DNA of 64,000 nt from Siphonodentalium dalli (lineage: Eukaryota; Mollusca; Scaphopoda; Gadilida; Siphonodentaliidae): NCBI GenBank assembly GCA_032622095.1, contig CP136062.1, forward strand, positions 13,421,710-13,485,709. The letters are read 5' to 3'. The notes beneath the pieces are model-generated. The model searched no databases. It was given only the letters and a program-made list of their open reading frames with translations, and had not been told where the DNA came from. Numbering within the stretch: the first letter of the stretch is position 1; each line of letters starts with the position of its first letter. Position numbers and translations under genes: made by a program. Shown in pieces: positions 10,550 through 53,009 of the stretch.

Positions 10550-11402
10550 CTAGCCGATGAGCCCGACGTTGTCCGGGCTATTCAAAAACAAAATTTCAAG
10601 TCGATAGCTCTACCCAGCCCGACGTTGTCCGGGCTATTCAGAAACCAAGTTTCAAGTCGATAGCTCCACCCGTTTCCGAGATCTCGTCTGCGCATGCGCG
10701 AAGCTGGCGTCGCACGGGTTCGGCGACCCGATAAAATTCGTATCCGGGGCAAGATACATTCACATACCAAATGTCAAGTCGATAGCTCCACCCGTTTCCG
10801 ATATCTCGTCTGCGCATGCGCGAAGCTGGCGTCGCACGGACTTGGCGACCCGATAAAATTCGTATCCGGGGCAAGATACATTCACATATCAAATTTTAAG
10901 TCGATAGCTCCACCCGTTTCCGAGATCTCGTCTGCCGGGGTTTCTGAGAAGCGTTATGCCTCTATCCACACTAACTACCCCCCTAAGCCCTGGCCCAAGT
11001 GGCATACATACTATAACAATGATGCTGAACACTTTGAGGCAATTATATTGCAGAAATGTTGTAAGAGTACTGTGGCATCCAATAAATCTCCCAGCATAGG
11101 AAACCACTCAAAATCCCGTATATCTCTCTGCAGATACTAATCACGTTGAATGGTAAACAAACGCTCTTTATAGCGATGTGTCAAAAAACAAACGCTCATT
11201 AAATTATCACTTGATTAACCACCTCAGTGCCGTTTTTTGTGACTGAGATTGGAGAACGGGTGCTCTGAGCTTCTCAAAAACGCTGCGACGACGATTCCCG
11301 TGGGATTTTACCTTCAGATAGGAAGTTTGGTCAAGATCGGTCAACCCGTTTTCGATTCTATGAAGTACACATATATATACGGAAGTCTCAAAATATATAG
11401 TA
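10550..11402 (-). repeat. Helitron-like unit 12, type II end
   Basis: It begins with a short internal duplication of its own 3' hairpin block (gcccgacgttgtccgggct at about 10,560 and 10,617). Its middle is the same segment as unit 4. Confidence 0.55.
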
Positions 11403-19960: not shown

Positions 19961-21976
19961 GGTACCATTGAGTGCGTATTCACGGATGACCATTATTATT
20001 AGTCTAGTTTATATTGTGCCATTGTGCGCGTATTCACGGATGACCATTATTATTAGTATGGTTTGTATTGTGCCATTGTGCGCGTATTCACGGATGACAA
20101 TTATTGTTAGTCTTGTTTGTATGGTGCCATTGTGCGCGTATTCACGGATCACGGATGACCATTATTATTAGTCTAGTTTATATTGTGCCATTGTGCGCGT
20201 ATTCACGGATGACCATTATTGTTAGTCTTGTTTGTATTGTGCCATTGTGCGCGTATTCACGGATGACCATTATTATTAGTCTTGTTTATATTGTGCCATT
20301 GAGCGCGCATTCACGGATGACCATTATTGTTAGTCTTGTTTATATTGTGCCATTGTGCGCGTATTCACTGATGACCATTATTATTAGTCTTGTTTATATT
20401 GTGCCATTAGCGCGCATTCACTGATGACTATTATTATTAGTCTTGTTTGTATTGTGCCATTGTGCGCGTATTCACTGATGACCATTATTATTAGTCTTGT
20501 TTATATTGTGCCATTAGCGCGCATTCACTGATGACTATTATTATTAGTTTTGTTTATATTGTGCCATTAGCGCGCATTCACGGATGACTATTACCATTAG
20601 TCTTGTTTGTATTGTGCCATTGTGCGCGTATTCACGGATCACGGATCACGGATGACCATTATTATTAGTATAGTTTGTATTGTGCCATTGTGCGCGTGCG
20701 TATACACGGATGGCCATTATTATTAGTATAGTTTGTATTGTGCCAGTGTGCGCGTATTCACGGATGACCATTATTATTAGTCTTGTTTGTATTGTGCCAG
20801 TGTGCGCGTATTCACGGATCACGGATGACCATTATTATTAGTATGGTTTGTATTGTGCCAGTGTGCGCGTATTCACGGATCACGGATGACCATTATTATA
20901 GTCTTGTTTGTATTGTGCCATTGTGCGCGTATTCACGGATCACTGATGACAATTATTATTAGTATGGTTTGTATTGTGCCATTGTGCGCGTATTCACGGG
21001 TCAAGGATTACCATTATTATTAGTCTTGTTTGTATTGTGCCATTGTGCGCGTATTCACGGATCACTGATGACAATTATTATTAGTCTTGTTTGTATTGTG
21101 CCATTGTGCGCGTATTCACGGATCACTGATGACAATTATTATTAGTCTTGTTTGTATTGTGCCAGTGTGCGCGTATTCACGGATCACGGATGACCATTAT
21201 TATTAGTACAGTTTGTATTGTGCCATTGTGCGCGTGCGTATTCACGGATGACGGATGACCATTATTATTAGTATAGTTTGTATTGTGCCAGTGTGCGCGT
21301 ATTCACGGATGACCATTATTATTAGTCTTGTTTGTATTGTGTCATTGTACGCGTATTCACGGATCACGGATGACCATTATTATTAGTCTTGTTTGTATTG
21401 TGTCATTGTGCGCGTATTCACGGATGACGGATGACCATTATTATAGTCGTGTTTGTATTGTGCCATTGTGCGCGTATTCACGGATCACGGATGACCATTA
21501 TTATTAGTATAGTTTGTATTGTGTCATTGTACGCGTATTCACGGATCACGGATGACCATTATTATTAGTCTTGTTTGTATTATGTCATTGTACGCGTATT
21601 CACGGATCACGGATGACCATTATTATTAGTCTTGTTTGTATTGTGTCATTGTGCGCGTATTCACGGATGACGGATGACCATTATTATTAGTCTTGTTTGT
21701 ATTGTGTCATTGTGCGCGTATTCACGGATCACGGATGACCATTATTATAGTCTTGTTTGTATTGTGCCATTGTACGCGTATTCACGGATTTACGGATGAC
21801 CATTACTATTAGCATTGTTTGTATTGTGCCAGTGTGCGCGTATTCACGGATGACCATTATTATTAGTCTTGTTTGTATTGTGCCAGTGTGCGCGTATTCA
21901 CGGATCACGGATGACCATTATTATTAGTCTTGTTTGTATTGTGCCATTGTGCGCGTATTCACGGATCACGGATGAC
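19961..21976 (+). repeat. 54/61-bp satellite, block 1
   Basis: The monomer core is gaccattattattagtcttg plus tttgtattgtgccattgtg and cgcgtattcacggat. The short form is 54 bp and the long form 61 bp. They differ by a 7-bp duplication (cacggat) that occurs once, twice or occasionally three times. Substitutions such as cttg/atgg/atag after 'tag' distinguish subtypes. There are about 35 copies here. The block stops exactly at the target duplication of the palindromic element. Long frames through it come from the 54-bp (18-codon) period. Confidence 0.95.
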
Positions 21977-21982
21977 CATTAT
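21977..21982. repeat. 6-bp target-site duplication (left)
   Basis: CATTAT lies directly before the left end of the palindromic element and is repeated directly after its right end (27,116-27,121). Uninterrupted satellite monomers have one CATTAT at this place (gaccattattattag), so this is a true duplication made on insertion. Confidence 0.85.
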
Positions 21983-22330
21983 TGATGATACCCCGCCCGT
22001 TTGGCTGCTAATTAGCATAATCCGAAGTACACGACCTATATGCAGTACTCCAGTCTAGACAGTTTGACCTATATTCTCCGCCCACGCGTCGGTCTATTTG
22101 TACCGGTTGGACATGTCCGGACATGACCCGCTGGTTATATCCAGATTTCTCCATATGAATGGTATATTATCTACATGTATATCACGTGATGATCTCGGTG
22201 GGGTAGCTTCAGTCTTGAATATTAAAGGGATACTAGTCTCTCACGGGGGATGATTATTAAAGTGACACTCACTATGGATGAATGTTAAAGTAACACATGG
22301 CGCACACTGTGGGATAATGTTAAAGTGACA
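21983..22330. promoter_or_regulatory. Left subterminal region: p53-type site, E-box, iterated repeats
   Basis: It holds the palindrome GCTAATTAGC (22,007-22,016). Two p53-type decamers lie head to tail without spacer: GGACATGTCC (22,109-22,118, full match to RRRCWWGYYY) and GGACATGACC (22,119-22,128, one mismatch). The E-box palindrome ATCACGTGAT is at 22,181-22,190. Four direct copies of 'attaaagtgacactc'-like sequence stand about 30 bp apart (22,219-22,335). The mirror copy is in the right arm (p53-type pair at 26,970-26,989). Subterminal iterons are typical transposase or integrase binding sites; use here is inferred. Confidence 0.5.
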
Positions 22331-22336
22331 CTCGCA

Positions 22337-22560
22337 TTGAAAACTTCCAAAAAGTTCAAAAAGGTCAAAAAGGTCAAAAAGTTCAAAAAGTTCAAAAAGT
22401 TCAAAAAGTTAAAAAACTTCAAAAACTTCAAAAATTTCAAAAAGTTCAAAAATTTCAAAAACTTACAAAATTTCGAAAAACTTCAAAAACTTCAAAAACT
22501 TCAAAAACTTCACAAATTTCACAAATTTCACAAATTTCAAAAAACTTCAAAAATTAAACA
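22337..22560 (+). repeat. ttcaaaaag microsatellite (left arm)
   Basis: A 9-bp unit ttcaaaaa(g/c) is repeated about 20 times with drift. The inverted partner is at about 26,560-26,760 with a different array length. Lys/Phe-rich frames through it are artefacts. Confidence 0.85.
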
Positions 22561-22675
22561 AAATTCAGGATTTAGTCATAAATGTGACCCGCTATATCAA
22601 ATCCAGTCGGAAGTCGGGATTTTTTTTATCCTGTGCCAATGCATTCTCTTATATATGCGAGTCGACCAGCCGCCC

Positions 22676-22676
<1 letters not shown>

Positions 22677-22707
<31 letters not shown>

Positions 22708-22755
22708 TGTAATGCGCATGTCAACGCCGCGCCGCCGGCGGCGGCGGCAACTACA
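22677..22755 (+). repeat. GGC/CGG repeat tract pair (left arm, outer)
   Basis: A run of about ten GGC units (22,677-22,707) is followed by aatgcgcatgtcaacgccgc and a second GC palindromic stretch (cgccgccggcggcggcgg). The same composite recurs at 23,440-23,506, so it is duplicated inside the arm. Both copies recur inverted in the right arm. Confidence 0.85.
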
Positions 22756-22803
22756 TAATCCTATGGCATGCAAAGAAATTGGCGGCGGCGGTTAAGGATT
22801 TAG

Positions 22804-22983
22804 TCAGTGATGATACTGTTGTTGTTGTTGTTGGTGTTGTTGGTGTTGTTGTTGTTGTTGTGGCTGATGATACTGTTGTTGTTGTTGTTGTTGTTCTGAA
22901 GGCGTGTGTTTAACTTTGATATGACGCTTCAAACTATCTTGCCAAGCATAGACACTTAAGCACTCTTCACATTGATACTTCAT
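22804..22983 (-). CDS. C2H2 zinc-finger / polyglutamine small protein (left arm, intact)
   Basis: A 59-codon ORF that starts with ATG at 22,983 and ends with TGA at 22,804. Residues 4-27 form one classical C2H2 finger with spacing C-x2-C-x12-H-x4-H (YQCEEC ... LKRHIKVKH). After TPSE comes a Gln-rich tail in three runs broken by His, Tyr and Pro, encoded by CAA repeats. A TATA-like TATATAAA lies about 50 bp upstream in both arms. Single fingers of this kind bind nucleic acid or protein; the role here is unknown. The right-arm copy has a stop inside the finger. I do not know an exact family match. Confidence 0.55.
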   Translation of the reverse strand: MKYQCEECLSVYAWQDSLKRHIKVKHTPSEQQQQQQQYHQPQQQQQHQQHQQQQQQYHH

Positions 22984-23064
22984 TTTCCTATATAATCAGT
23001 GAAATCGAGCGTTCTTCTATGCACCTATATTTATATAGAACAGAAACAAGGGAAACGTGGTGGA

Positions 23065-23265
23065 CTAGTTAACTAGTTCAGGCTGTCGTTCACAACGTCT
23101 CTTAGTGTTGTTTGTACTGGATACAAATTTATCACATTGGCTACAATACAACCTACCTCTCCAAATGTCAATGCAATTATGAGTGAATTCAATATGAGAG
23201 TATATATATAAGCATTTGTATCGACATGTCGTGAATCTATCGAAATATCTTACTTCTCTTTCCAA
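23065..23265 (-). CDS. Cys-rich, degenerate zinc-finger-like ORF (left arm)
   Basis: A 66-codon open frame with no ATG: it opens at a TTG. It may be an exon, or a decayed remnant. Visible motifs are CRYKC with downstream H-x5-H-like spacing, and YCSQC followed 12 residues later by RRC where a C2H2 finger would have His. The frame ends PELVN and a stop only about 80 bp before the finger/polyQ ORF on the same strand, so the two may once have been one multi-finger gene. The right-arm counterpart (25,834-26,034) is open too and differs by one residue (Ile for Arg near position 42). Confidence 0.3.
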   Translation of the reverse strand: MEREVRYFDRFTTCRYKCLYIYSHIEFTHNCIDIWRGRLYCSQCDKFVSSTNNTKRRCERQPELVN

Positions 23266-23439
23266 ATTGCGTAATAATTATGTTGAGGTTCAGTGGGTAC
23301 GTCCTATATATCCAGCTGAAGGCAGAATGGACAATTGCTTCCTCTGATGTGCAGTTAGTTTGAATCAGTAAACATATGCACATGATTGTGTCTGTGCAAC
23401 TTGAAACAATACAATTAAAATCTGGTCGTTTTCGGCGGC

Positions 23440-23467
23440 GGCCGTAATGCGCATGTCAACGCCGCGC

Positions 23468-23506
<39 letters not shown>
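23440..23506 (+). repeat. GGC/CGG repeat tract (left arm, inner)
   Basis: A second copy of the aatgcgcatgtcaacgccgc plus GGC-run composite, here with about 12 GGC units, followed by ggttaaggatttagtca as in the outer copy. Confidence 0.85.
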
Positions 23507-23507
<1 letters not shown>

Positions 23508-23656
23508 TAAGGATTTAGTCACAAATATGGCTTGTTTCCATTCATCGGAAAACTATGGGGGTAAGGTGGTGAGCGCCACCGAAAAAAGCAAGTGAGCGAG
23601 GGAAAAAAGAGAAAAATAACATGACAAGTGGTACATAGTACAATTTATTATATTAA

Positions 23657-23719
23657 CTATTCACTGTCACTTTCGTCCGAATTGTCATCACTTTCGTCAG
23701 ATGTGTCATTTGTTTCCAT
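23657..23719 (-). CDS. Acidic mini-ORF or C-terminal exon (left arm)
   Basis: A 20-codon ATG frame made almost only of Asp, Glu, Ser, Asn and Thr, ending DESDSE. The frame is open further upstream (PLLEKF before the Met), so it may be the end of a spliced exon. The right-arm copy (25,371-25,436) keeps frame with one extra GAC codon. It lies just downstream of the Bcl-2-like stop. Acidic Ser-rich tails are typical CK2 substrates; function is unknown. Confidence 0.3.
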   Translation of the reverse strand: METNDTSDESDDNSDESDSE

Positions 23720-23748
23720 GAACTTTTCTAGCAATGGTCTGTACTTTA

Positions 23749-23779
<31 letters not shown>

Positions 23780-23786
23780 ATTGATA

Positions 23787-24368
23787 TTAATATGTTTGCC
23801 AATAATTTACACATCCATGAATCGATCTGAAAACATTATGGTTCATTGTCAACATTTTTGACGAGTAGTTGTCAATATTTAGACATTCCTGGAAGAAATT
23901 ATCCCAACTGCCTTCCCGTTCGACCCATTGGTCAGTGTATAATGTCACGATAGTGTGTGCCCATTGCACAATTTCGCTGACCAATGAGAAGTCGTTGTCT
24001 TTGTATGCTTTTAAACACATTTTTCCTGTGAACAGGAATGCAGCCATTATTCTCTCCCATGTGTAGGGGCCATCTTCCCGAAATATATTGTCCAACAAGT
24101 CACTAAATATATAGGGAAAATGATCCCTATCGCAATTGTCCAATTTCCCTGTCAGCTCATTTAACAGCCACATGTTATAATTTTCCAGCTGTTGAAGTAT
24201 TCTTCTTGTGCAGTCACGTATTTCATCTAACTCTGATAAATAAAAGTTATTAGTGTCTGGGTAATGAAAGCCGTTTCTCAGAATGATATGCCTGACATAA
24301 CTTTTCATCAAATATTTCGTAACTGCGCCAACTTCCATACTGTTCAATTTCTTGAGCTGTGTATCCAT
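23787..24368 (-). CDS. Bcl-2-like protein (left arm, intact)
   Basis: An ORF of 193 codons from the Met at 24,368 (a Met five codons upstream precedes an Ile run of microsatellite origin). Bcl-2 proteins control mitochondrial apoptosis by binding BH3 peptides in a groove. BH1 is seen at residues about 98-118 (DGPYTWERIMAAFLFTGKMC): Trp, Arg and the aromatic-Ala-Phe-Phe core are kept, but the family's NWGR reads TWER. BH2 is at about 148-160 (WVEREGSWDNFFQ). A weak BH3-like segment is at about 49-63 (EIRDCTRRILQQLEN). There is no clear C-terminal membrane anchor. It is encoded in one exon inside a mobile element, like captured viral Bcl-2 homologues. Anti-apoptotic action is inferred. Confidence 0.7.
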   Translation of the reverse strand: MDTQLKKLNSMEVGAVTKYLMKSYVRHIILRNGFHYPDTNNFYLSELDEIRDCTRRILQQLENYNMWLLNELTGKLDNCDRDHFPYIFSDLLDNIFREDGPYTWERIMAAFLFTGKMCLKAYKDNDFSLVSEIVQWAHTIVTLYTDQWVEREGSWDNFFQECLNIDNYSSKMLTMNHNVFRSIHGCVNYWQTY

Positions 24369-24400
24369 TATTATTATTATCAACAGTCCCTTTATTATGT

Positions 24401-24666
24401 TGAGTCAGCTAACCAATCAAAATGCATGATATTAACGTGTTCCGACATGTTTCATTTCTAATTTTAGATGTTAAATGTGCCGACATTGTTCTTTGTTGTT
24501 GTAAAAAAATTGGCGCGGCGGCAGTGAGGGGGGTGATGGGGGCCGCACGCGCGCCAATTGTTTTACAACAACAAAGAACAATGTCGGCACATTTAACATC
24601 TAAAATTAGAAATGAAACATGTCGGAACACGTTAATATCATGCATTTTGATTGGTTAGCTGACTCA
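24401..24666. promoter_or_regulatory. Central divergent promoter candidate with CCAAT and AP-1 sites
   Basis: Both arms carry an inverted-CCAAT/AP-1 pair upstream of the Bcl-2-like gene: TGAGTCA (24,401-24,407) with AACCAAT (24,411-24,417) on the left, and ATTGGTT (24,650-24,656) with TGACTCA (24,660-24,666) on the right. The loop between the arms is G-rich (24,518-24,549). Genes in the two arms read away from here, so this would be a divergent promoter. Confidence 0.4.
24518..24549. other. Loop (centre) of the palindrome
   Basis: About 32 bp not inverted, containing gaggggggtgatggggg. It lies between attggcgcg and cgcgccaat, where the two arms meet. Confidence 0.8.
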
Positions 24667-24693
24667 ACATAATAAAGGGACTGTTGATATTTT

Positions 24694-25300
24694 ATGTCTG
24701 ACGTAGAAGGGAAAAAAATAATAATGGATACACAGCTCAAGAAATTGAACAGTATGGAAGTTGGCGCAGTTACGAAATATTTGATGAAAAGTTATGTCAG
24801 GCATATCATTCTGAGAAACGGCTTTCATTACCCAGACACTAATAACTTTTATTTATCAGAGTTAGATGAAATACGTGACTGCACAAGAAGAATACTTCAA
24901 CAGCTGGAAAATTATAACATGTGGCTGTTAAATGAGCTGACAGGGAAATTGGACAATTACGATAGGGATCATTTTCCCTATATATTTAGTGACTTGTTGG
25001 ACAATATATTTCGAGAAGATGGCCCCTACACATGGGGAGAGAATAATGGCTGCATTCCTGTTCACAGGAAAAATGTGTTTAAAAGCATACAAAGACAACG
25101 ACTTCTCATTGGTCAGCGAAATTGTGCAATGGGCACACACTATCGTGACATTATACACTGACCAATGGGTCGAACGGGAAGGCAGTTGGGATAATTTCTT
25201 CCAGGAATGTCTAAATATTGACAACTACTCGTAAAAAATGTTGACAATGAACCATAATGTTTTCAGATCGATTCATGGATGTGTAAATTATTGGCAAATA
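24694..25300 (+). pseudogene. Bcl-2-like gene copy, broken (right arm)
   Basis: The same gene as at 23,787-24,368, inverted. One extra G after 'acacatggg' at about 25,037 shifts the frame inside the BH1 region, and a C-to-A change makes a TAA at about 25,232. The second half, including the BH2 motif WVEREGSWDNFF, is readable in the shifted frame (24,989-25,234). The 5' end differs from the left copy: an Ile run is replaced by a segment that adds a different upstream Met and SDVEGKK. Unable to give full-length product as it stands. Confidence 0.7.
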
Positions 25301-25370
25301 TATTAATATCAATTGTGTGTATATATATATATATTATATATTAAAGTACAGACCATTGCTAGAAAAGTTC

Positions 25371-25436
25371 ATGGACGAAACAAATGACACATCTGACGAA
25401 AGTGATGACAATTCGGACGAAAGTGACAGTGAATAG
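25371..25436 (+). CDS. Acidic mini-ORF or C-terminal exon (right arm)
   Basis: The counterpart of 23,657-23,719, with 21 codons because of an in-frame GAC insertion after the Met. It ends DESDSE. The indel keeps the frame, which is compatible with past coding use but could be chance. Confidence 0.25.
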   Translation: MDETNDTSDESDDNSDESDSE

Positions 25437-25585
25437 TTAATATAATAAATTGTACTATGTACCACTTGTCATGTTATTTTTCTCTTTTTTCCCTCGCTCA
25501 CTTGCTTTTTTCGGTGGCGCTCACCACCTTACCCCCATAGTTTTCCGATGAATGGAAACAAGCCATATTTGTGACTAAATCCTTA

Positions 25586-25589
<4 letters not shown>

Positions 25590-25631
<42 letters not shown>

Positions 25632-25672
25632 GCGCGGCGTTGACATGCGCATTACGGCCGCCGCCGAAAACG
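25590..25672 (+). repeat. CCG repeat tract (right arm, inner)
   Basis: About 12 CCG units, then ggcggcgcggcgttgacatg and catgcgcattacggcc. Mirror of 23,440-23,506. Confidence 0.85.
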
Positions 25673-25833
25673 ACCAGATTTTAATTGTATTGTTTCAAGT
25701 TGCACAGACACAATCATGTGCATATGTTTACTGATTCAAACTAACTGCACATCAGAGGAAGCAATTGTCCATTCTGCCTTCAGCTGGATATATAGGACGT
25801 ACCCACTGAACCTCAACATAATTATTACGCAAT

Positions 25834-26034
25834 TTGGAAAGAGAAGTAAGATATTTCGATAGATTCACGACATGTCGATACAAATGCTTATATATATACT
25901 CTCATATTGAATTCACTCATAATTGCATTGACATTTGGATAGGTAGGTTGTATTGTAGCCAATGTGATAAATTTGTATCCAGTACAAACAACACTAAGAG
26001 ACGTTGTGAACGACAGCCTGAACTAGTTAACTAG
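25834..26034 (+). CDS. Cys-rich, degenerate zinc-finger-like ORF (right arm)
   Basis: Inverted copy of 23,065-23,265, open over the same length and ending PELVN. It opens at a TTG, so an ATG-initiated product is doubtful. Both arms have Arg-Cys where the second half of a C2H2 finger would place His, so the change precedes the separation of the arms. Confidence 0.25.
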   Translation: MEREVRYFDRFTTCRYKCLYIYSHIEFTHNCIDIWIGRLYCSQCDKFVSSTNNTKRRCERQPELVN

Positions 26035-26061
26035 TCCACCACGTTTCCCTTGTTTCTGTTC

Positions 26062-26069
26062 TATATAAA
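26062..26069 (+). promoter_or_regulatory. TATA-like box before the finger/polyQ ORF
   Basis: TATATAAA lies 47 bp before the ATG at 26,116. The same sequence is present in the left arm upstream of 22,983. A second TATA-like sequence, CATATATAAGAG, is at 26,460 with no ORF recognised after it. Confidence 0.3.
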
Positions 26070-26115
26070 TATAGGTGCATAGAAGAACGCTCGATTTCAC
26101 TGATTATATAGGAAA

Positions 26116-26190
26116 ATGAAGTATCAATGTGAAGAGTGCTTAAGTGTCTATGCTTGGCAAGATAGTTTGAAGCGTCATATCAAAGTTTAA
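26116..26190 (+). pseudogene. C2H2/polyQ ORF, truncated by a stop (right arm)
   Basis: Identical to the left-arm finger until its last zinc-ligand spacer, where AAA has become TAA (26,188-26,190). The frame stops before the second His. The downstream CAA repeats (26,200-26,300) would continue in frame and are longer than in the left arm. Confidence 0.55.
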
Positions 26191-26357
26191 CACACGCCTT
26201 CAGAACAACAACAACAACAACAACAACAACAGTATCATCAGCCACAACAACAACAACAACACCAACAACACCAACAACAACAACAACAACAGTATCATCA
26301 CTGACTAAATCCTTAACCGCCGCCGCCAATTTCTTTGCATGCCATAGGATTATGTAG

Positions 26358-26403
26358 TTGCCGCCGCCGCCGCCGGCGGCGCGGCGTTGACATGCGCATT
26401 ACA

Positions 26404-26441
<38 letters not shown>
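26358..26441 (+). repeat. CCG repeat tracts (right arm, outer)
   Basis: Inverted partner of 22,677-22,755: a GC palindrome, gacatgcgcattacagcc, then about 12 CCG units. Confidence 0.85.
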
Positions 26442-26559
26442 GGGCGGCTGGTCGACTCGCATATATAAGAGAATGCATTGGCACAGGATAAAAAAAATCC
26501 CGACTTCCGACTGGATTTGATATAGCGGGTCACATTTATGACTAAATCCTGAATTTTGT

Positions 26560-26760
26560 TTAATTTTTGAAGTTTTTTGAAATTTGTGAAATTTGTGAAA
26601 TTTGTGAAATTTGTTAAGTTTTTGAAATTTTTGAACTTTTTGAAATTTTTGAAATTTTTGAAATTTTTGAACTTTTTGAACTTTTTGAACTTTTTGAACT
26701 TTTTGAACTTTTTGAACTTTTTGAACTTTTTGACCTTTTTGAACTTTTTGGAAGTTTTCA
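26560..26760 (+). repeat. tttttgaac microsatellite (right arm)
   Basis: Reverse complement of the left-arm ttcaaaaag array, with a different copy number and different drift. Confidence 0.85.
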
Positions 26761-26779
26761 ATGCGAGTGTCACTTTAAC

Positions 26780-27115
26780 ATTATCCCACAGTGTGCGCCA
26801 TGTGTTACTTTAACATTCATCCATAGTGAGTGTCACTTTAATAATCATCCCCCGTGAGAGACTAGTATCCCTTTAATATTCAAGACTGAAGCTACCCCAC
26901 CGAGATCATCACGTGATATACATGTAGATAATATACCATTCATATGGAGAAATCTGGATATAACCAGCGGGTCATGTCCGGACATGTCCAACCGGTACAA
27001 ATAGACCGACGCGTGGGCGGAGAATATAGGTCAAACTGTCTAGACTGGAGTACTGCATATAGGTCGTGTACTTCGGATTATGCTAATTAGCAGCCAAACG
27101 GGCGGGGTATCATCA
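26780..27115. promoter_or_regulatory. Right subterminal region
   Basis: Mirror of 21,983-22,330, with the same iterons, the E-box ATCACGTGAT, and the p53-type pair at 26,970-26,989 (GGTCATGTCC then GGACATGTCC). It ends GGGGTATCATCA at 27,115. Confidence 0.5.
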
Positions 27116-27121
27116 CATTAT
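27116..27121. repeat. 6-bp target-site duplication (right)
   Basis: CATTAT, the second copy of the left-flank hexamer, after which the satellite monomer resumes in register (tattagtcttg). Confidence 0.85.
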
Positions 27122-27258
27122 TATTAGTCTTGTTCGTATTGTGTCATTGTACGCGTATTCACGGATCACGGATGACCATTATTATTAGTCTTGTTTGTAT
27201 TGTGCCATTGTACGCGTATTCACGGATCACGGATGACCATTATTATTAGTGTTGTTTT
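27116..27258 (+). repeat. 54/61-bp satellite, block 2 (short)
   Basis: About two and a half monomers follow the palindromic element, in register with block 1. The block ends where 'ttattagtgttg' passes into unrelated sequence. Confidence 0.9.
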
Positions 27259-29180
27259 ATGGTGCCCACATTCATAGTGAGCAATGTTTTATAGAGCCCA
27301 TATACAGAATGAGCAGGTGATGCCACAGTGTCCTGGGCCCACAAACAAGGTACCCCGCCTTGCTCACCGGAAGCTTATATTATGCTAATGATGAACAGAC
27401 ATTCTGCCGTAGGAGCAGTTTTAGCCAGTCAAAAATAAAAATAGTGTAAATAAAATTGTAGAGAATCCTGAATATCATGAATTGATTACACGATGGTATA
27501 CACTTACAAAGCCCAAAATTTACAACTATAAATTCAACAACAGTCGTAGTCAGGTTATATTGTTTATATAAACATCGGAGGTGCCCTTGTTGTTAGCGGG
27601 AGGTATCGGAATCCACCGAGATCGCATCGGGCGCATACATTGCTATATTTTACATATTTTCGCGTTATCATATGTGTATTTTACATATTAAATATAGTAT
27701 ACACAAATTATGGCATCCAGGTGAGACATACAAATCTCTCGCGGAAAACAGACGCAAACGGACGGACGGGCGGACTGACTAAACGGCAGACATTGAATGT
27801 CGGCCACAAAACGTTATCCTACATTATATATTAAATATATATATTAGCGTCTTTTATGCGTGCAAGGAGTTTGACTGTTGGAGTCCGCAATATTTATAAC
27901 AAATAACGCTTTTTAATTATATGCATATATGTGCGTGTTTACCTGCTTGTATTTTTGGGTCTAAAGTTCCCGTCTTTGTAAAACAAGTGCGTTTATCATG
28001 TACGCATATACAAACCATAACCATTCATACTTGGGTATGAATGTTTCACTTCATATACTCATTAAAAGATATCAACATTGACAATTAATTATCGAATAAT
28101 CCACACACTATCGTGGAAGGTTATTTCGTTTCTTTGACCAAGGGAGGTCCCGTTGTTTGATTACCTATAATTCCGTAAACAAATAAATAACTCATAGATG
28201 AACCACTCTTTATATATAATACAGTAGCTTAACAGTCTGGGAAACAAAGCTGATACATGTAGTAAGCATTTTTACACGACAAGACAACATGCGTTATCAT
28301 ATATGTGTATTTTCTATATTAAATATCGGTATACACATACTAATGACATCCAGGTGAGACATAAAAATATATCGCGGAAAACAGACACAAACGGACGGAC
28401 GGGCGGACTGACTAAATGGCAGACATTGAATGTCGGCCACAAAACGTTATCGAATTATCCACACATTATCGTGGAAGGTTATTTCGTGTCCTTGATCAAG
28501 GGAGGTCCCGTTGTCTGATTACCGGTACCCATAAATCCCGTATAAAAATAAATCATAGATAAACCACTCTTTATGTAATGCAGTAGCTTTGGCTATGCAT
28601 GTAGTAAGTATCTATATATCACACGACAACTTGTATATTTTATATTTGTCATGATATATAGGGCTGTTGTCAGTAAGTAATTAAATTACAAACCTATACA
28701 TATGATATGGTAAACGCTCTTTATATAGAGTATATAACAGTTATGTATATAGGGTACATCGGCTGGGATTGTGTTCAAAGTTCCCATGCATACAATTTGT
28801 TATCGTGATAGCAGACAAAAACGTGGGCCATCCCACATACAGGTATACAATCAACCATCCATAAGTTAAATGGTTTGTTGGTTAACGGGTCCTGTTTCTA
28901 AAGTGGTGTTGACATGTGGAGCTATGTAAACATGTCATATTTACTGTATTTGAGTGTTTATTTTTTGAGTGTTTATTTTTTGACTTATCGTACTAGCTTG
29001 ATAACACAGAAGGGATCAATTGTTTGGAAAATGTTTACTAAGTCCTTTTCCGAAATCATATTTTTGTATCGAAAGTTGGTCCTATAAAAAAAGGTGTTTG
29101 GCCACAGCAGCTCATCAGGTACACTTCTGGTCTTTAACAAATATAAAGCAATCTGTTATTTCATATGTGGTTTCGGGAGT
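27259..29180. repeat. Unclassified block inside the satellite, with internal duplication
   Basis: AT-rich sequence without coding support. Two segments each occur twice. One is gcggaaaacagacgcaaacg-type with 'gacggacgggcggactgac' (27,655-27,830 and 28,290-28,450). The other is 'ccacacactatcgtggaagg' with 'aagggaggtcccgttgt' (28,095-28,165 and 28,450-28,520). Two partial copies of one repeat in direct order explain this best. No terminal repeats or target duplication were found. Confidence 0.55.
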
Positions 29181-32047
29181 ATTGTGACATTGTGCGCGTA
29201 TTCACGGATCACGGATGACCATTATTATTAGTCTTGTTTGTATTGTGCCAGTGTGTGCGTATTCACGGATCACGGATGACCATTATTATTAGTCTTGTTT
29301 GTATTGTGCCATTGTGCGCGTATTCACGGATCACGGATGACCATTATTATTAGTCTTGTTTGTATTGTGCCAGTGTGCGCGTATTCACGGATCACGGATG
29401 ACCATTATTATTAGCATTGTTTGTATTGTGCCATTGTGCGCGTATTCACGGATCACGGATGACCATTATTATTAGTCTTGTTTGTATTGTGCCAGTGTGC
29501 GCGTATTCACGGATCACGGATGACCATTATTATTAGCATTGTTTGTATTGTGCCATTGAGCGCGTATTCACGGATCACGGATGACCATTATTATTAGTCT
29601 TGTTTGTATTGTGCCAGTGTGCGCGTATTCACGGATCACGGATGACCATTATTATTAGTATGGTTTGTATTGTGCCAGTGTGCGCGTATTCACGGATGAC
29701 CATTATTATTAGTCTTGTTTGTATTGTGTCATTGTGCGCGTATTCACGGATCACTGATGACCATTATTATTAGTCTTGTTTGTATTGTGCCATTGTGCGC
29801 GTATTCACGGATCACTGATGACCATTATTATTAGTCTTGTTTGTATTGTGCCATTGTACGCGTATTCACGGATCACGGATGACCATTATTATTAGTCTTG
29901 TTTGTATTGTGCCATTGTGCGCGTATTCACGGATCACTGATGACCATTATTATTAGTCTTGTTTGTATTGTGCCAGTGTGCGCGTATTCACGGATGACGG
30001 ATGACCATTATTATTAGTCTTGTTTGTATTGTGTCAGTGTGCGCGTATTCACGGATCACTGATGACCATTATTATTAGTCTTGTTTGCATTGTGCCAGTG
30101 TGCGCGTATTCACGGATGACCATTATTATTAGTCTTGTTTGTATTGTGTCATTGCGCGCGTATTCACGGATCACGGATGACCATTATTATAGTCTTGTTT
30201 GTATTGTGCCATTGTGCGCGTATTCACGGATCACGGATGACTATTATTATTAGTATAGTATGTATTGTGCCAGTGTGTGCGTATTCACGGATGACCATTA
30301 TTATTAGTCTTGTTTGTATTGTGCCATTGTGCGCGTATTCACGGATCACGGATGACCATTATTATTAGTATGGTTTGTATTGTGCCATTGTACGCGTATT
30401 CACGGATGACCATTATTATTAGTCTTGTTTGTATTGTGCCATTGTGCGCGTATTCACGGATCACGGATGACCATTATTATTAGTATGGTTTGTATTGTGC
30501 CATTGTACGCGTATTCACGGATGACCATTATTATTAGTCTTGTTTGTATTGTGCCATTGTGCGCGTATTCACGGATCACGGATGACCATTATTATTAGTC
30601 TTGTTTGTATTGTGCCATTGTACGCGTATTCACGGATCACGGATGACCATTATTATTAATATGGTTTATATTGTACCATTGTACGCGTATTCACGGATGA
30701 CCATTATTATTAGTATAGTTTGTATTGTGCCATTGTGCGCATATTCACGGATCACTAATGACCATTATTATTAGTCTTGTTTGTATTGTGCCATTGTACG
30801 CGTATTCACGGATGACCATTATTATTAGTATATTGTTTGTATTGTGCCATTGTGGGCGTATTCGCGGAAGACCATTATTATTAGTCTTGTTTGTATTGTG
30901 CCATTTTACGCGTATTCACGGATGACCATTATTATTAGTATTGTTTGTATTGTGCCATTGTGCGCGTATTCACGGATCACGGATGACCATTATTATTAGT
31001 ATAGTTTGTATTGTGCCATTGTTCGCGTATTCACGGATGACCATTATTATTAGTCTTATTTGTACTGTGCCATTGTACGCGTATTCACGGATGACCATTA
31101 TTATTAGTATATTGTTTGTATTGTGCCATTGTGGGCGTATTCACGGATGACCATTATTATTAGTCTTCTTTGTATTGTGCCATTGTACGCGTATTCACGG
31201 ATGACCATTATTATTAGTATTGTTTGTATTGTGCCATTGTGCGCGTATTCACGGATCACGGATGACCATTATTATTAGTATGGTTTATATTGTGCCATTG
31301 TTCGCGTATTCACGGATGACCATTATTATTAGTCTTATTTGTACTGTGCCATTGTACGCGTATTCACGGATGACCATTATTCTTAGTCTTGTTTGTATTG
31401 TGCCATTGTACGCGTATTCACGGATGACCATTATTATTAGTATGGTTTGTATTGTGTCAGTGTACGCGTATTCACGGATGACGGATGACCATTATTATTA
31501 GTATAGTTTGTATTGTGCCATTGTACGCGTATTCACGGATCACGGGTTACCATTATTATTAGTATGGTTAGTATTGTGTCAGTGTACGCGTATTCACGGA
31601 TCACGGGTGACCATTATTATTAGTCTTGTTTGTATTGTGTCATTGTACGCGTATTCACGGATGACCATTATTATTAGTCTTGTTTGTATTGTGCCTGTGT
31701 CCGCGTATTCACGTATCACGGATGACCATTATTATTAGTCTTGTTTGTATTGTGTCATTGTACGCGTATTCACGGATCACGGATGACCATTATTATTAGT
31801 CTTGTTTGTATTGTGTCATTGTACGCGTATTCACGGATCACGGATGACCATTATTATTAGTCTTGTTTGTATTGTGCCATTGTGCGCGTATTCACGGATC
31901 ACGGATGACCATTATTATTAGTCTTGTTTGTATTGTGTCATTGTGCGCGTATTCACGGATCACGGATGACCATTATTATTAGTCTTGTTTGTATTGTGCC
32001 ATTGTACACGTATTCACGGATGACCATTAGTATTAGTCTTGTTTGTA
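29181..32047 (+). repeat. 54/61-bp satellite, block 3
   Basis: About 50 monomers of the block-1 family. Several subtypes alternate (gtcttg, gtatgg and gtatag after 'attatta'; tgtgcgcg versus tgtacgcg). Local runs of one subtype suggest recent local amplification. It is cut at 32,047 by a retrotransposon. Confidence 0.95.
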
Positions 32048-34290
32048 CCCAAACCCATAAGCCCCCCTCATAAAAAAATCACGTACAGGAAATACAACAC
32101 TAACAATGTCAATATTTTCAAAAACTTGTTAAAATCATGTAAATTCGACTCAGTTCTCAGTTGTAACTCCCCTGATAAGGCATATGAAATATTTTTAGAC
32201 ATATATATGAACGCACATGATCTAGCCTTTCCTCTCATAACACGAAATGTACCCAAAAAATATATAAAACGCGAACCATGGATGACATCTGGACTCATTA
32301 AATCCTCTATTACTAAGCAAGAATTATACTCTAATAAACTGAAGGCACCTTCAGAAACAAATAAAATCGCCTATTTAAATTATCGTCAATTATACAATAA
32401 ACTAATAAGGAAATGCAAAAATAATTATTACTGCGATAGCCTAGAAAAAAATAAGAATGATATAAAAAACACATGGAAAATTCTTAAAACCGCAATCAAT
32501 AAAAATCATAAATCATGTAACTACCCTCAGACATTTAATGATAACGATACAGAGCTATCTGATCCGAACATAATAGCCGACAAATTCAATGACTACTTTT
32601 CAAAAATCGGTCGAAACACCAGCAACTCCATACACACTGAAAACGATGCAAATTTCACTGATTATCTTCGAGACAGGCAAATAAACGCACTCGAAATCGA
32701 ACCTACATCGATACAGGAAATAATATTGACATGCTATACTATGAAAGGGAAAATGAGCAAAGATTACAACGGCATATCGACCGCACTTATGAAAGAGAGT
32801 ATCTTCACAATAGCCACACCACTTAATCATATATTTAATCTATCGTTCGAACAGGGAATATTCCCAGCTAAAATGAAAGTTTCCAAAGTAGTCCCCATTC
32901 CTAAAATAAATAACTCAAAGGAAATAACAAACTACCGCCCAATCAGTATCCTGCCATCGTTCTCTAAACTACTTGAAAAAATAATGCAAAAACGACTAGT
33001 AGATTTTCTAAATGAACATGAAATCTTGTATAAACACCAATATGGATTTAGACCAAATCACTCAACTTTTCACCCGATTTTGCACCTTCTAGACCATCTC
33101 GTTAAAAATAATGATAAACCGACACGGGATTCCACCTTAGCTGTATTTATTGATTTATCTAAAGCATTCGATACGATCGACCACGACATACTGATATCGA
33201 AACTGGAACACTATGGCATCAGGGGTGTAGCAATGTCATGGTTCCATAGTTATTTGAATGAGCGGAGGCAATACGTTGAATATGGTGGGACTACTTCTAA
33301 CCTTATGAACACTTCCTGTGGGGTCCCCCAAGGCTCAATTCTTGGGCCGATTATTTTCTTAATATACGTGAATGATATGGTAAATTCTACAACAATAGAC
33401 ATTTTATCGTATGCCGATGACACAACACTGTTTACAAGCGGTAAAGATGGCGAACTAGTACAAAGTTACGTCAACAATGAATTAGCCAATGTATCAGACT
33501 GGTGCTGCTGTAATAAACTCTCAATTAATATTAATAAAAGCAACTACATGATTTTACACCCCCAAAACAATGACCAAAAGTGGAATACTTTGAAATTAAA
33601 GCTAAATAACACTCAATTGAACCGAATAGGGAATCTTGGACATGAATCATCGGCAAAATTTCTAGGTATTCATATTGATGAGAACTTGACATTCAAAAAG
33701 CACATATCCATAATCTGCTCCAAATTATCACATGCAATCTACTCATCAATAAGGTGAAACATTTTTTCCCAAGTAAAGCATTGAAAACATTGTACTATGC
33801 ACTGATTCAAAGCCACTTAGTTTATGGTATCCAAATATGGGGTCATGTTCCGGAAGTCAAGAAAATATTCCTATTACAAAAAAGAGCAATGCGTATAATA
33901 TGCAATAAGAAGTATAGGAGTCACACAGATCCACTCTTTAAAAGAGAGAATATCTTGAAAATATATGACTTACACACCCTCAATTCCTCCATTTTTATGC
34001 ATGACTGGTGTTATAACCGCCTGCCTGCGTCTTTTGGAATGATGTACAGTAAACGAGCAAAATCAACACCAAGACACCCGAATCCCGTTCTGTTAGAACT
34101 ACCTAGAACTGACTGGTCAGGTAAATTGCCACACCACGCCTACCCCACAACATGGAACAACATGGAAAAAGACTATACATCTTACCAAAGCAGGCACACA
34201 CTGAAGAAGCGCTTACAGATAGCAATGCTTAGAAATTACCAAGAAAATGTACGCTGTAAAAACAAAGGATGTCCCGACTGTGCTCTATAA
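32048..34290 (+). pseudogene. Reverse transcriptase ORF2 remnant, frameshifted
   Basis: One frame runs to a TGA at 33,755-33,757. The product continues in another frame (33,754-34,290), so one frameshift splits it. RT motifs in order (residues counted from 32,039) are NYRPISILPSFSK, HQYGFRPNHST, FIDLSKAFDTIDH with catalytic Asp at about 372, CGVPQGSILGP, and YADD at about 458-461, then FLGIHIDENLTF. The second part holds the usual C-terminal region (SHLVYGIQIWG) and ends in a Cys-rich knuckle-like CKNKGCPDC. This polymerase copies element RNA at a nicked target. The endonuclease part is missing and the frame is broken, so the copy is dead. The first few codons derive from satellite. Confidence 0.9.
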
Positions 34291-34793
34291 ATAATATGAA
34301 TATTCATTGTTATACTTGATGCAAAATCATAATTGTTCTCGACACTAACATACATATAAACATTACATATATGTAATACTGTTAATTTGAATATCCCAAC
34401 ACCTCACTCAACAAAAAAAAAAAAAAGACTTTCCAGCGATATATATATAGATAATTCCTATCTTACTTACTTAACTAAAGATGGCGGTATCTTACAATTC
34501 GTCTGGATTGTCCCACAACCACACCAATACTTGTCTGTGATATGCCCCAAAACTAGTTTCTAGTTAGTTTTATACACGATAATACATGTAGTCTATACGT
34601 ATGCGTGGATAAAAATACAAGCCATCTTTGCAAATACTTATAGTGATACTTGTTTTAGGGGGTAGCAGGAAGACAGCCCGATAGGGCTAGGCTAACCCCC
34701 AACAATATATACAGCATTTATATTATTATATGTTACTGTCATTGTATTATTCATGTGTATATTGTAAATAAATTATCCTATCCTATCCTATCC
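32048..34793 (+). mobile_element. 5'-truncated non-LTR retrotransposon (CR1/jockey-like)
   Basis: A 2.75-kb insertion starts inside the region before the reverse transcriptase (RT) domain and ends with a (TATCC) tail of about four units after 'gtaaataaat'. The upstream endonuclease domain is missing, which is typical of incomplete reverse transcription. The satellite reads ...gtttgta before it and ttgtgtc... after it; together they rebuild an uninterrupted monomer, so there is no target duplication and no deletion. The 3' UTR (34,291-34,793) has a small hairpin, agcccgatagggct (34,675-34,688). Confidence 0.85.
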
Positions 34794-37700
34794 TTGTGTC
34801 ATTGTACGCGTATTCACGGATCACGGATGACCATTATTATTAGTCTTGTTTGTATTGTGTCATTGTGCGCGTATTCACGGATCACGGATGACCATTATTA
34901 TTAGTCTTGTTTGTATTGTGTCATTGTGCGCGTATTCACGGATCACGGATGACCATTATTATTAGTCATGTTTGTATTGTGTCAGTGTGTGCGTATTCAC
35001 GGATCACGGATGACCATTATTATTACTCTTGTTTGTATTGTGCCAGTGTGCGCGTATTCACGGATCACGGATGACCATTATTATTAGTCTTGTTTGTATT
35101 GTGCCAGTGTGTGCGTATTCACGGATCACGGATGACCATTATTATTAGCATTGTTTGTATTGTGCCATTGTGCGCGTATTCACGGATCACGGATGACCAT
35201 TATTATCAGTATGGTTTGTATTGTGCCAGTGTGCGCGTATTCACGGATCACGGATGACCATTATTATTAGTATGGTTTGTATTGTGCCAGTGTGCGCGTA
35301 TTCACGGATCACGGATGACCATTATTATTAGTCTTGTTTATATTGTGTCATTGTGCGCGTATTCACGGATCACTGATGACCATTATTATTAGTATGGTTT
35401 GTATTGTGCCATTGTGCGCGTATTCACGGGTCACGGATGAACATTATTATTAGCATTGTTTGTATTGTGCCATTGTACGCGTATTCACGGATCACGGATG
35501 ACCATTATTATTAGTCTTGTTTGTATTGTGCCATTGTGCGCGTATTCACGGATCACTGATGACCATTATTATTAGTCTTGTTTGTATTGTGCCAGTGTGC
35601 GCGTATTCACGGATGACGGATGACCATTATGATTAGTCTTGTTTGTATTGTGTCAGTGTGCGCGTATTCACGGATCACTGATGACCATTATTATTAGTAT
35701 AGTTTGTATTGTGCCAGTGTGCCCGTATTCACGGATGACCATTATTATTTATCTTGTTTGTATTGTGTCATTGTGCGCGTATTCACGGATCACGGATGAC
35801 CATTATTATAGTCTTGTTTGTATTGTGCCATTGTGCGCGTATTCACGGATCACGGATGACCATTATTATTAGTCTTGTTTGTATTGTGCCATTGTACGCG
35901 TATTCACGGATGACCATTATTATTAGTCTTGTTTGTATTGTGCCATTGTGCGCGTATTCACGGATCACGGATGACCATTATTATTAGTATGGTTTGTATT
36001 GTGCCAGTGTGTGCGTATTCACGGATGGCCATTATTATTAGTCTTGTTTGTATTGTGCCATTGTGCGCGTATTCACGGATCACGGATGACCATTATTATT
36101 AGTATGGTTTGTATTGTGCCATTGTACGCGTATTCACGGATGACCATTATTATTAGTCTTGTTTGTATTGTGTCATTGTACGCGTATTCACGGATCACGG
36201 ATCACGGATGACCATTATTATTAGTATGGTTTATATTGTATCATTGTACGCGTATTCACGGATGACCATTATTATTAATATAGTTTGTATTGTGCCATTG
36301 TGCGCATATTCACGGATCACGGATGACCATTATTATTAGTCTTGTTTGTATTGTGCCATTGTACGCGTATTCACGGATGACCATTATTATTAGTATATTG
36401 TTTGTATTGTGCCATTGTGGGCGTATTCACTGATGACCATTATTATTAGTCTTGTTTGTATTGTGCCATTGTACGCGTATTCACGGATGACCATTATTAT
36501 TAGTATGGTTTGTATTGTGCCATTGTTCGCGTATTCACGGATGACCATTATTATTAGTATAGTTTGTATTGTGCCATTGTACGCGTATTCACGGATGACC
36601 ATTATTATTAGTCTTGTTTGTATTGTGCCATTGTACGCGTATTCACGGATCACGGATGACCATTATTATTAGTATAGTTTGTATTGTGCCATTGTACGCG
36701 TATTCACGGATGACCATTATTATTAGTCTTGTTTGTATTGTGTCATTGTGCGCGTATTCACGGATCACGGATGACCATTATTACTAGTCTTGTTTGTATT
36801 GTGCCATTGTGTGCGTATTCACGGATTCACGGATGACCATTATTATTAGTATGGTTTGTATTGTGCCATTGTACGCGTATTCACGGATGACCATTATTAT
36901 TCGTATTGTTGTATTGTGCCAGTGTGTGCGTATTCACGGATCACTGATGACCATTATTATTAGCATTGTTTTATTGTGCCATTGTGCGCGTATTCACGGA
37001 TTTACGGATGACCATTATTATTAGTATGGTTTGTATTGTGCCATTGTACGCGTATTCACGGATGACCATTATTATTAGCATTGTTTGTATTGTGCCATTG
37101 TGCGCGTATTTACGGATGACCATTATTATTAGCATTGTTTGTATTGTGCCATTGTGCGCGTATTCACGGATGACAATTATTATTAGTGTTGTTTGTATTG
37201 TGCCAGTGTGCGCGTATTCACGGATCACGGATGACCATTATTATTAGTCTTGTTTGTATTGTGCCATTGTGCGCGTATTCACGGATGACCATTATTATTA
37301 GTATTGTTTGTATTGTGCCATTGTGCGCGTATTCACGGATGACCATTATTATTATTATTGTTTGTATTGTACCATTGTGCGCGTATTCACGGATGACCAT
37401 TATTATTAGTATTATTTGCATTGTGCCATTGTGCGCGTGCGTATTCACGGATGGCCATTATTATTAGTATTGTTTGTATTGTGCCATTGTGCGCGTATTC
37501 ACGGATCACGGGTGACCATTATTATTAGTATTGTTTGTATTGTGCCATTGTGGGCGTATTCACGGATGACCATTATTATTAGTATTGTTTGTATTGTGCC
37601 ATTGTGCGCGTATTCACGGATGACCATTATTATTAGTATTGTTTGTATTGTGTAATTGTGCGCGTATTCACGGATGACCATTATTATTAGTATTGTTTGT

Positions 37701-37930
37701 ATTGTGCCATTGTGCGCGTGCGTATTCACGGATGGCCATTATTATTAGTATTGTTTGTATTGTGCCATTGTGCGCGTATTCACGGATCACGGATGACCAT
37801 TATTATTAGTCTTGTTTGTATTGTGCCATTGTGCGCGTATTCACGGATGACCATTATTATTAGTATGGTTTGTATTGTGCCAGTGTGCGCGTATGCACGG
37901 ATCACGGACGACGATTAGTATTAGTCTTGC
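34794..37930 (+). repeat. 54/61-bp satellite, block 4
   Basis: About 55 monomers. Toward the right end (37,020-37,900) a nearly pure 54-bp subtype with gtattg predominates, and a variant cgcgtgcgtattc (6-bp insertion) appears at 37,432 and 37,717, about 285 bp apart, hinting at a local higher-order unit. It ends with degenerate monomers at 37,900-37,930. Confidence 0.95.
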
Positions 37931-38395: not shown

Positions 38396-38451
38396 GTTTT
38401 AAAATAAAGCTTCGTACCTATGGCCAATCTTTCAAACGCAAAATCACCCAC

Positions 38452-53000: not shown

Positions 53001-53009
53001 GTTATGTTG

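What the first reader, a model, noticed from the sequence alone, without database searches (positions are those of the whole stretch)
21977..27121. A 5.1-kb full-length palindrome with a perfect 6-bp target duplication
The sequence directly shows two arms of about 2.5 kb, exact reverse-complement ends (TGATGATACCCC / GGGGTATCATCA), and CATTAT on both sides where an intact satellite monomer has only one. The whole thing is a mobile unit, not a local inversion. Six-bp duplications plus long TIRs are known for Polinton/Maverick/adintovirus and IS3EU groups, yet none of their core genes is here. An element consisting only of two inverted accessory-gene cassettes would be unusual: a terminal-repeat dimer, a new non-autonomous class, or a genome end-to-end dimer of a linear-DNA parasite.
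Basis: partly seen in the sequence, partly recalled or inferred. Interest (0 to 1): 0.9.

Follow-up and report, generated by a model that had tools for sequence, protein, structure and literature searches.

The report
Palindromic virus-like insertion with Bcl-2 genes
A 5.1-kb stretch of what appears to be animal DNA is a near-perfect mirror image that seems to have inserted into a satellite repeat as one piece; each half carries a gene related to the cell-death regulator Bcl-2, and it may be the folded-back, defective end of a larger integrating DNA virus, though that parent has not been seen.

Summary
A 5133-bp palindrome (21983-27115) interrupts a 61-bp satellite, with TGATGATACCCC/GGGGTATCATCA ends and CATTAT on both sides. 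The flanks, joined less one CATTAT, match intact satellite without gaps. The outer 390 bp of the arms are exactly inverted; outside low-complexity tracts the arms differ by 8 substitutions and 5 indels in about 2.1 kb; a 19-nt loop lies at the centre. The mirror stops exactly at the ends and the arms differ, so a fold-back artefact is unlikely. Each arm carries a Bcl-2 family gene (left ORF: Pfam E 2.7e-14) and a short C2H2/polyQ ORF (weak match), both pointing outward; the left copies are open, the right ones broken. No core viral or transposase gene was found.
Best reading: one end of a Maverick/Polinton/adintovirus-like linear virus, duplicated head-to-head by snap-back and inserted by a helper integrase. 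The 6-bp duplication and doubled end triplet (TGA)2//(TCA)2 resemble published Maverick ends in kind. IS3EU, Ginger1/2 and Dada do not fit. The parent is not demonstrated: the host-genome search did not complete, no relative was found elsewhere, and Bcl-2-like domains also occur in an LTR retrotransposon. One copy; held at about one half.

The parts
21983..27115 (.). whole palindromic element, 5133 bp, (TGA)2//(TCA)2 ends
21977..21982 (+). left CATTAT target duplication
27116..27121 (+). right CATTAT target duplication
21983..22372 (+). left outer terminal repeat, exactly inverted to 26726-27115; its inner third holds three imperfect TTAAAGTGACACTC-type motifs (two with exact GTGACACTC)
   Evidence: 390 bp exact; motif positions
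26726..27115 (-). right outer terminal repeat
21983..24522 (+). left arm
24523..24541 (+). 19-nt central loop AGTGAGGGGGGTGATGGGG, closed by GCGGC/GCCGC, then a 3-nt bulge
   Evidence: DNA-parameter fold
24542..27115 (+). right arm
23787..24368 (-). left Bcl-2 family ORF, 193 aa, open; no hydrophobic C-terminal anchor in this ORF
   Evidence: PF00452 E 2.7e-14; Bcl-xL chains E 3.2e-09; hydropathy
24724..25234 (+). right Bcl-2 copy, split into two frames by a one-base length difference around the BH1 motif (motif name recalled)
   Evidence: the second piece matches PF00452 at 4e-08, the first piece has no Bcl-2 match
25231..25351 (+). candidate 121-nt GT-AG intron of the right Bcl-2 copy
   Evidence: not confirmed by RNA
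25352..25436 (+). candidate last exon: acidic tail PLLEKFMDETNDTSDESDDNSDESDSE and stop, with AATAAA at 25444; the left arm has the same tail less one residue
22804..22983 (-). left C2H2 zinc-finger plus polyQ ORF, 59 aa
   Evidence: zf-H2C2_5 E 0.00067, 19.6 bits against a curated cut-off of 27
26116..26190 (+). right zinc-finger copy, cut short by a stop after 24 codons
   Evidence: read
20088..21976 (.). 61-bp satellite array on the left of the insertion
27122..27266 (.). 61-bp satellite on the right of the insertion

Best explanation
A defective, self-complementary genome of a Maverick/Polinton/adintovirus-like linear DNA virus, fixed in an animal chromosome. One genome end (terminal repeat plus accessory genes for a Bcl-2-type protein and a small zinc-finger protein) was copied; the strand folded back near a short GCGGC/GCCGC inverted match and was copied again, giving a head-to-head dimer with a viral end at both sides. 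A retrovirus-like integrase supplied in trans then joined both TG..CA ends to a satellite monomer with a 6-bp stagger. Shown: the mirror structure, the ends, the duplication, the empty site, the Bcl-2 homology, the loop. Inferred: the parent virus, protein-primed copying, the snap-back step, the helper integrase, and an anti-death function.
For: Both outer ends are symmetrical and flanked by CATTAT, and the mirror stops exactly there, so the palindrome itself looks like the insertion substrate. [quoted passage not shown] Here the motif is (TGA)2//(TCA)2, the exact outer repeat is 390 bp, and the genes recognised in the arm are of accessory type. [quoted passage not shown] Bcl-2 assignment. The hairpin centre with a 19-nt loop is the shape of symmetric snap-back genomes described for AAV, including 3' forms with the promoter head-to-head at the centre (PMC8235507, passages).
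Against: No core gene of such a virus was found in the element, and no full-length relative could be sought in the host (genome search did not complete). The triplet is not one reported in those passages; a doubled first triplet occurs by chance about once in 64 (my estimate). The Bcl-2 gene has a candidate intron, while intact vertebrate Mavericks were reported intronless. Bcl-2 is not peculiar to viruses: a BCL2-like motif is reported in planarian Burro LTR retrotransposons (PMC6431247, passages), and LTR elements are given 3-6 bp duplications. The adintovirus paper read has no word beginning 'bcl', and the review of viral Bcl-2 has none beginning 'adinto' or 'maverick'. Searches with the Bcl-2 ORF confirmed no relative in viral contigs (0 of 4 pattern matches; 0 of 8 with its middle piece) or genome contigs (0 of 45). 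Paper searches showed no precedent: adintovirus with Bcl-2, 0 papers; five phrases for a non-autonomous or derived Polinton/Maverick, 0 papers; Polinton with snapback or dimer words, 5 papers listed, none combining them.
Confidence: 0.5

Rival explanations
1. Internal-deletion derivative: the parent is a Maverick-like or other element whose terminal repeats are themselves about 2.5 kb and gene-bearing; deletion of the core left the two repeats almost touching.
For: Two nearly identical gene-bearing arms and a tiny spacer are what such a deletion would leave.
Against: Reported vertebrate Maverick terminal repeats reach 1447 bp, mean 402. A deletion that removes all unique core and leaves a 19-nt loop closed by matching bases needs luck (inference).
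Confidence: 0.15
2. A non-autonomous fold-back DNA transposon moved by a DDE transposase making 6-bp duplications (GingerRoot-like or undescribed) that picked up host Bcl-2 and zinc-finger sequences.
For: GingerRoot makes 6-bp duplications and occasionally ends TG..CA (PMC10045372, passages). The candidate Bcl-2 intron suits a captured host gene.
Against: GingerRoot ends are mostly TA..TA. Two separate cargo genes and no transposase match above a Pfam cut-off among the 14 ORFs of the element that were scanned are not what a simple deletion derivative of a transposon would show.
Confidence: 0.15
3. A self-standing satellite element: a hairpin genome that carries only survival-type genes and spreads by borrowing a helper virus's polymerase and integrase.
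For: Ends, terminal repeats and promoter-like motifs are present, and no replication gene was recognised.
Against: One copy only; the right-arm gene copies are broken; no relatives found.
Confidence: 0.13
4. A palindromic copy of one end of an LTR retroelement that carries a Bcl-2 domain, in the manner of planarian Burro elements.
For: TG..CA ends and 3-6 bp duplications are usual for LTR elements, and Burro elements have a BCL2-like motif.
Against: No gag, protease, reverse transcriptase or integrase match in the 14 element ORFs scanned; a candidate intron is kept, which an RNA template would tend to lose (inference).
Confidence: 0.04
5. Assembly or sequencing fold-back artefact.
For: Palindromes are a known form of long-read and amplification artefact (recalled).
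Against: A fold-back would mirror the flanking satellite too and be identical; here the mirror stops at the ends (0 bp beyond), the arms differ by 18 substitutions and 12 indels, and the flanks rejoin into a clean satellite.
Confidence: 0.03

Closest known systems
Maverick/Polinton elements and adintoviruses
   Same: 6-bp target duplication, terminal inverted repeats, short repeated end motif (a doubled triplet), accessory regions next to the core; [quoted passage not shown]
   Different: 5.1 kb instead of 12.7-24.6 kb (intact vertebrate Mavericks); no PolB, integrase, ATPase, protease or capsid gene found; end triplet TGA instead of AGT; whole unit palindromic; candidate intron.
AAV snap-back subgenomes (symmetric, 3'-type)
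   Same: Self-complementary copy of one genome end with, in the dimer, the promoter head-to-head at the centre (passages).
   Different: A parvovirus with a different replication mode; here there is a chromosomal insertion with a target duplication.
Adenovirus symmetric left-end recombinants (SYREC-type DNA of Ad12, recalled from memory, not tested)
   Same: Left end duplicated in inverted orientation, carrying the early region that encodes a viral Bcl-2 homologue (recalled; E1B19K is named as a viral Bcl-2 in PMC11209288, passages).
   Different: No paper on it was found: 7 listed, none by title, and the one hit for the word 'syrec' is a peptide string. No integrase and no target duplication there (recalled).
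GingerRoot / IS3EU transposons
   Same: 6-bp target duplications; GingerRoot occasionally TG..CA (passages).
   Different: IS3EU always TA..TA; no transposase gene found here.
Burro giant LTR retrotransposons of planarians
   Same: A mobile element that carries a BCL2-like motif (PMC6431247, passages).
   Different: There the motif is part of a huge polyprotein of an LTR element; here a separate small gene in a palindrome without reverse transcriptase.

Membership tests
Maverick/Polinton/adintovirus | 6-bp target site duplication | tested here: met
   CATTAT on both sides, empty-site comparison; 7 bp not excluded
Maverick/Polinton/adintovirus | repeated short end motif of the reported types | tested here: inconclusive
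   (TGA)2//(TCA)2 is a doubled triplet, but the reported motifs are AGT, AG and AC types
Maverick/Polinton/adintovirus | core genes: PolB, rve integrase, ATPase, protease, capsid proteins | tested here: not met
   5 stop-to-stop ORFs of at least 120 aa lie in the element: two hold the Bcl-2 copies, three are largely low complexity; 14 element ORFs or pieces were scanned against Pfam and only Bcl-2 passed a cut-off. Shorter ORFs were scanned only in part
Maverick/Polinton/adintovirus | size 12.7-24.6 kb (intact vertebrate elements) | tested here: not met
   5133 bp; range
Maverick/Polinton/adintovirus | intronless genes (intact vertebrate elements) | tested here: inconclusive
   candidate GT-AG intron in the right Bcl-2 copy, no RNA evidence; rule
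Snap-back defective genome | one sequence present twice in inverted order around a small loop | tested here: met
Snap-back defective genome | a parental full-length genome with the same end | not tested
   own-genome search unanswered (11 requests, last)
IS3EU | TA..TA termini | tested here: not met
   TG..CA; family rule
GingerRoot | 6-bp duplication, TA..TA or occasionally TG..CA ends, IS3EU/Ginger-related transposase | tested here: inconclusive
   ends and duplication compatible; no transposase match in the ORFs scanned
Ginger1/Ginger2 | TGTNR ends, 4-bp (TDD-4/5: 5-bp) duplications | tested here: not met
   TGATG, 6 bp; rule
Dada | insertion in small RNA genes; no terminal inverted repeats (stated for the U6 and U1 groups) | tested here: not met
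   long terminal repeats, satellite target; rule
Bcl-2 family protein | PF00452 above the curated cut-off | tested here: met
   54 bits against a cut-off of 31.4; Bcl-xL sequence matches
Bcl-2 family protein | binds BH3 ligands and inhibits cell death | not testable with these tools
   needs a bench assay; the single-sequence model is poor (pLDDT 48.7), though its top fold matches are Bcl-xL (best E 2.6e-3, none at E <= 0.001)

The most novel reading that the evidence does not exclude
This is one member of a class of satellite elements for which I saw no description: integrated hairpin genomes that carry only host-survival-type genes (Bcl-2 and zinc finger) between two viral ends and spread by borrowing a Maverick-like helper's polymerase and integrase. 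In effect, a virus's defective interfering genome turned into a heritable mobile element.
Probability: 0.15. Interest if true: 0.88.

Novelty: new variant of a known kind. Interest (0 to 1): 0.6.

Why it matters
Whether animal Mavericks/adintoviruses replicate as free linear viral DNA is still largely inferred from their genes (PMC8097293 states that Maverick particles have not been observed; abstract as shown). A chromosomally fixed snap-back genome would be a physical trace of that replication: on this reading it forms from a linear molecule copied outside the chromosome and is then inserted by the virus's integrase. It would also show that accessory genes of the anti-death type can travel without the virus, and it gives a simple search handle (the terminal 40 bp) for the parent.

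Tried and rejected
Rejected: local inversion or chance palindrome (exact ends, target duplication, clean empty site). Assembly fold-back (arms differ, mirror stops at the ends). IS3EU, Ginger1/2, Dada (end, target and duplication rules). KolobokP, read because it is called composite-like: it has long direct, not inverted, repeats, and Kolobok makes TTAA duplications.

Led nowhere: the Bcl-2 ORF and its middle piece against viral contigs and the ORF against genome contigs, no relative confirmed; terminal 22-mer in viral contigs, 0; terminal 16-mer, 2 stretches, L001 and L002, both inside contigs, with no similarity to the element beyond matches of 20 bases or fewer and no Bcl-2 match better than E 1.5, taken as chance; satellite 38-mer in viral contigs and genome contigs, 0 and 0. 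Single-sequence AlphaFold of the Bcl-2 ORF, mean pLDDT 48.7; Foldseek's top hits are Bcl-xL but none at E <= 0.001, so the assignment rests on sequence. Pfam scan of 10 further element ORFs gave only matches below cut-off, the lowest E 0.0063 (DUF5677), with NOP5NT, Adeno_PIX, Toxin_9, v110 and others from 0.033 up; I take them as chance and low complexity. The host species was not identified; 'animal' rests on two thrombospondin domains and a reverse transcriptase and is an inference. Paper lists were capped: 25 of 93 rows seen and 15 of 130; none of the rows shown puts a Bcl-2 gene in a Polinton, but the rest was not seen and 'Maverick' with 'Bcl-2' was not searched as a pair.
Full report
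The observation. The window contains a 5133-bp palindrome at 21983-27115, flanked by CATTAT at 21977-21982 and 27116-27121. Its ends are TGATGATACCCC and GGGGTATCATCA. The outer 390 bp of the two arms are exact inverted copies, and the mirror does not extend a single base beyond the ends. Aligned arm to arm (21983-24521 against 24546-27115) there are 18 substitutions and 12 indels; 10 and 7 of these lie in low-complexity tracts, and 8 substitutions and 5 indels in the remaining ~2137 bp (a full alignment is). The centre folds into an almost unbroken hairpin with a 19-nt loop at 24523-24541 and a 3-nt bulge. The flanks are a 61-bp satellite. Joined less one CATTAT they match satellite elsewhere in the window across the junction in 133 of 144 (overlapping) hits, the best over 259 columns without a gap at 97.3%. 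No other copy of the element is in the window; BLAST against the rest gives 7 short weak matches (best 42 columns at 83%, E 5e-4).

Cautions. In a tandem repeat an apparent 6-bp overlap arises about once in 61 from unrelated breakpoints (my estimate), and a 7-bp CATTATT duplication is possible if the terminal T belongs to the target. The coincidence of the duplication with mirror-symmetric TG..CA ends is what makes integration the natural reading. A fold-back artefact of sequencing would have mirrored the satellite and would not give arms that differ.

Genes. The left arm has an open 193-aa ORF (24368 to 23787, minus strand) that matches Pfam Bcl-2 at 2.7e-14, above the curated cut-off, and Bcl-xL chains in the PDB at 3.2e-09. 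The right copy is split into two frames around the BH1 motif (motif name recalled); its second piece alone matches Bcl-2 at 4e-08, its first piece has no Bcl-2 match. The right arm has a GT-AG intron candidate (25231-25351, 121 nt) leading into an acidic tail, a stop and AATAAA at 25444; the left arm has the same tail less one residue and a donor GTCAAA that is weaker by the usual consensus (recalled). The 193-aa ORF has no hydrophobic C-terminal anchor. Further out each arm has a short ORF with one C2H2 finger and a glutamine tract: 59 aa on the left, stopped after 24 codons on the right; the zinc-finger match is weak (E 0.00067, under the cut-off). Both genes point outward from the centre. 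Near the centre the right arm shows CCAAT-like, AP-1-like and TATA-like motifs at 24650, 24660 and 24670 (read by eye, motif names recalled). Five stop-to-stop ORFs of at least 120 aa lie in the element: two hold the Bcl-2 copies and three are largely low-complexity. Of 14 element ORFs or pieces scanned, only the two Bcl-2 pieces passed a Pfam cut-off.

What it is. Because both outer ends are joined to the target in the same way, the palindrome probably existed before insertion. [quoted passage not shown] The arm here resembles one end of such a virus in kind: doubled triplet (TGA)2, a terminal repeat, then accessory-type genes. PMC8235507 (passages) describes symmetric snap-back AAV genomes, including 3' forms with the promoter head-to-head at the centre, a similar layout. 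I therefore favour a snap-back defective genome of a Maverick/adintovirus-like virus, inserted by helper integrase, at about 0.5.

What argues against. The parent is unseen: the own-genome search did not complete in 11 requests. The TGA motif is not among those in the passages read, and a doubled first triplet has a chance of about 1 in 64. The candidate intron departs from intronless vertebrate Mavericks. Bcl-2-like motifs are also known from planarian Burro LTR retrotransposons (PMC6431247, passages), so the cargo does not by itself point to a virus. No relative was confirmed in viral contigs or genome contigs, collections not made for animal genomes. In print, as far as searched: adintovirus with Bcl-2, 0 papers; five phrases for non-autonomous or derived Polintons/Mavericks, 0 papers; Polinton with snap-back or dimer words, 5 papers, none combining them; the rows shown (25 of 93; 15 of 130) named no Bcl-2 gene in a Polinton, the rest was not seen. 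A DOI that I recalled for the paper that named adintoviruses is not held.

Rivals. IS3EU (TA..TA ends), Ginger1/2 and Dada fail on defining features. It is not filed as a member of Maverick/Polinton, because the core genes and size were tested and not met; the claim is that it derives from, and moved like, such an element.

Novelty and value. As a structure it is a new variant of a known kind. If the parent virus is found, it is a chromosomal trace of extrachromosomal linear replication by an animal Maverick-like virus. If instead many such palindromes exist without a parent, it is a new class of satellite element. The test is a single genome search with the terminal sequence.

Noticed in passing
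32024-34790: A retroelement, LINE-like by its tail (inference), with reverse transcriptase (PF00078, E 4e-38) lies between two arrays of the same 61-bp satellite (29179-32021 and 34794-37929) and ends in TCCTA repeats; the satellite may collect insertions.
   Followed up: partly
6372-9134 and 8149-10935: Direct duplication, 97.3% identical over 2789 columns, in a region of 122-bp tandem units.
   Followed up: no
38444-38830 and 41383-41892, minus strand: Two thrombospondin type 1 domain pieces (PF00090, E 3e-09 and 1.7e-06), probably exons of an animal gene.
   Followed up: no
22568, 22796, 23511 (and mirrored 25572, 26302, 26539): GGATTTAGTCA occurs three times per arm, two of them beside GGC-rich tracts, and nowhere else in the window on either strand; possible binding site for the element's own zinc-finger protein (speculation).
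   Followed up: partly
50407-51869 and 52989-53757: 66-bp and 45-bp tandem arrays with long open frames, as expected of units that are multiples of three.
   Followed up: no
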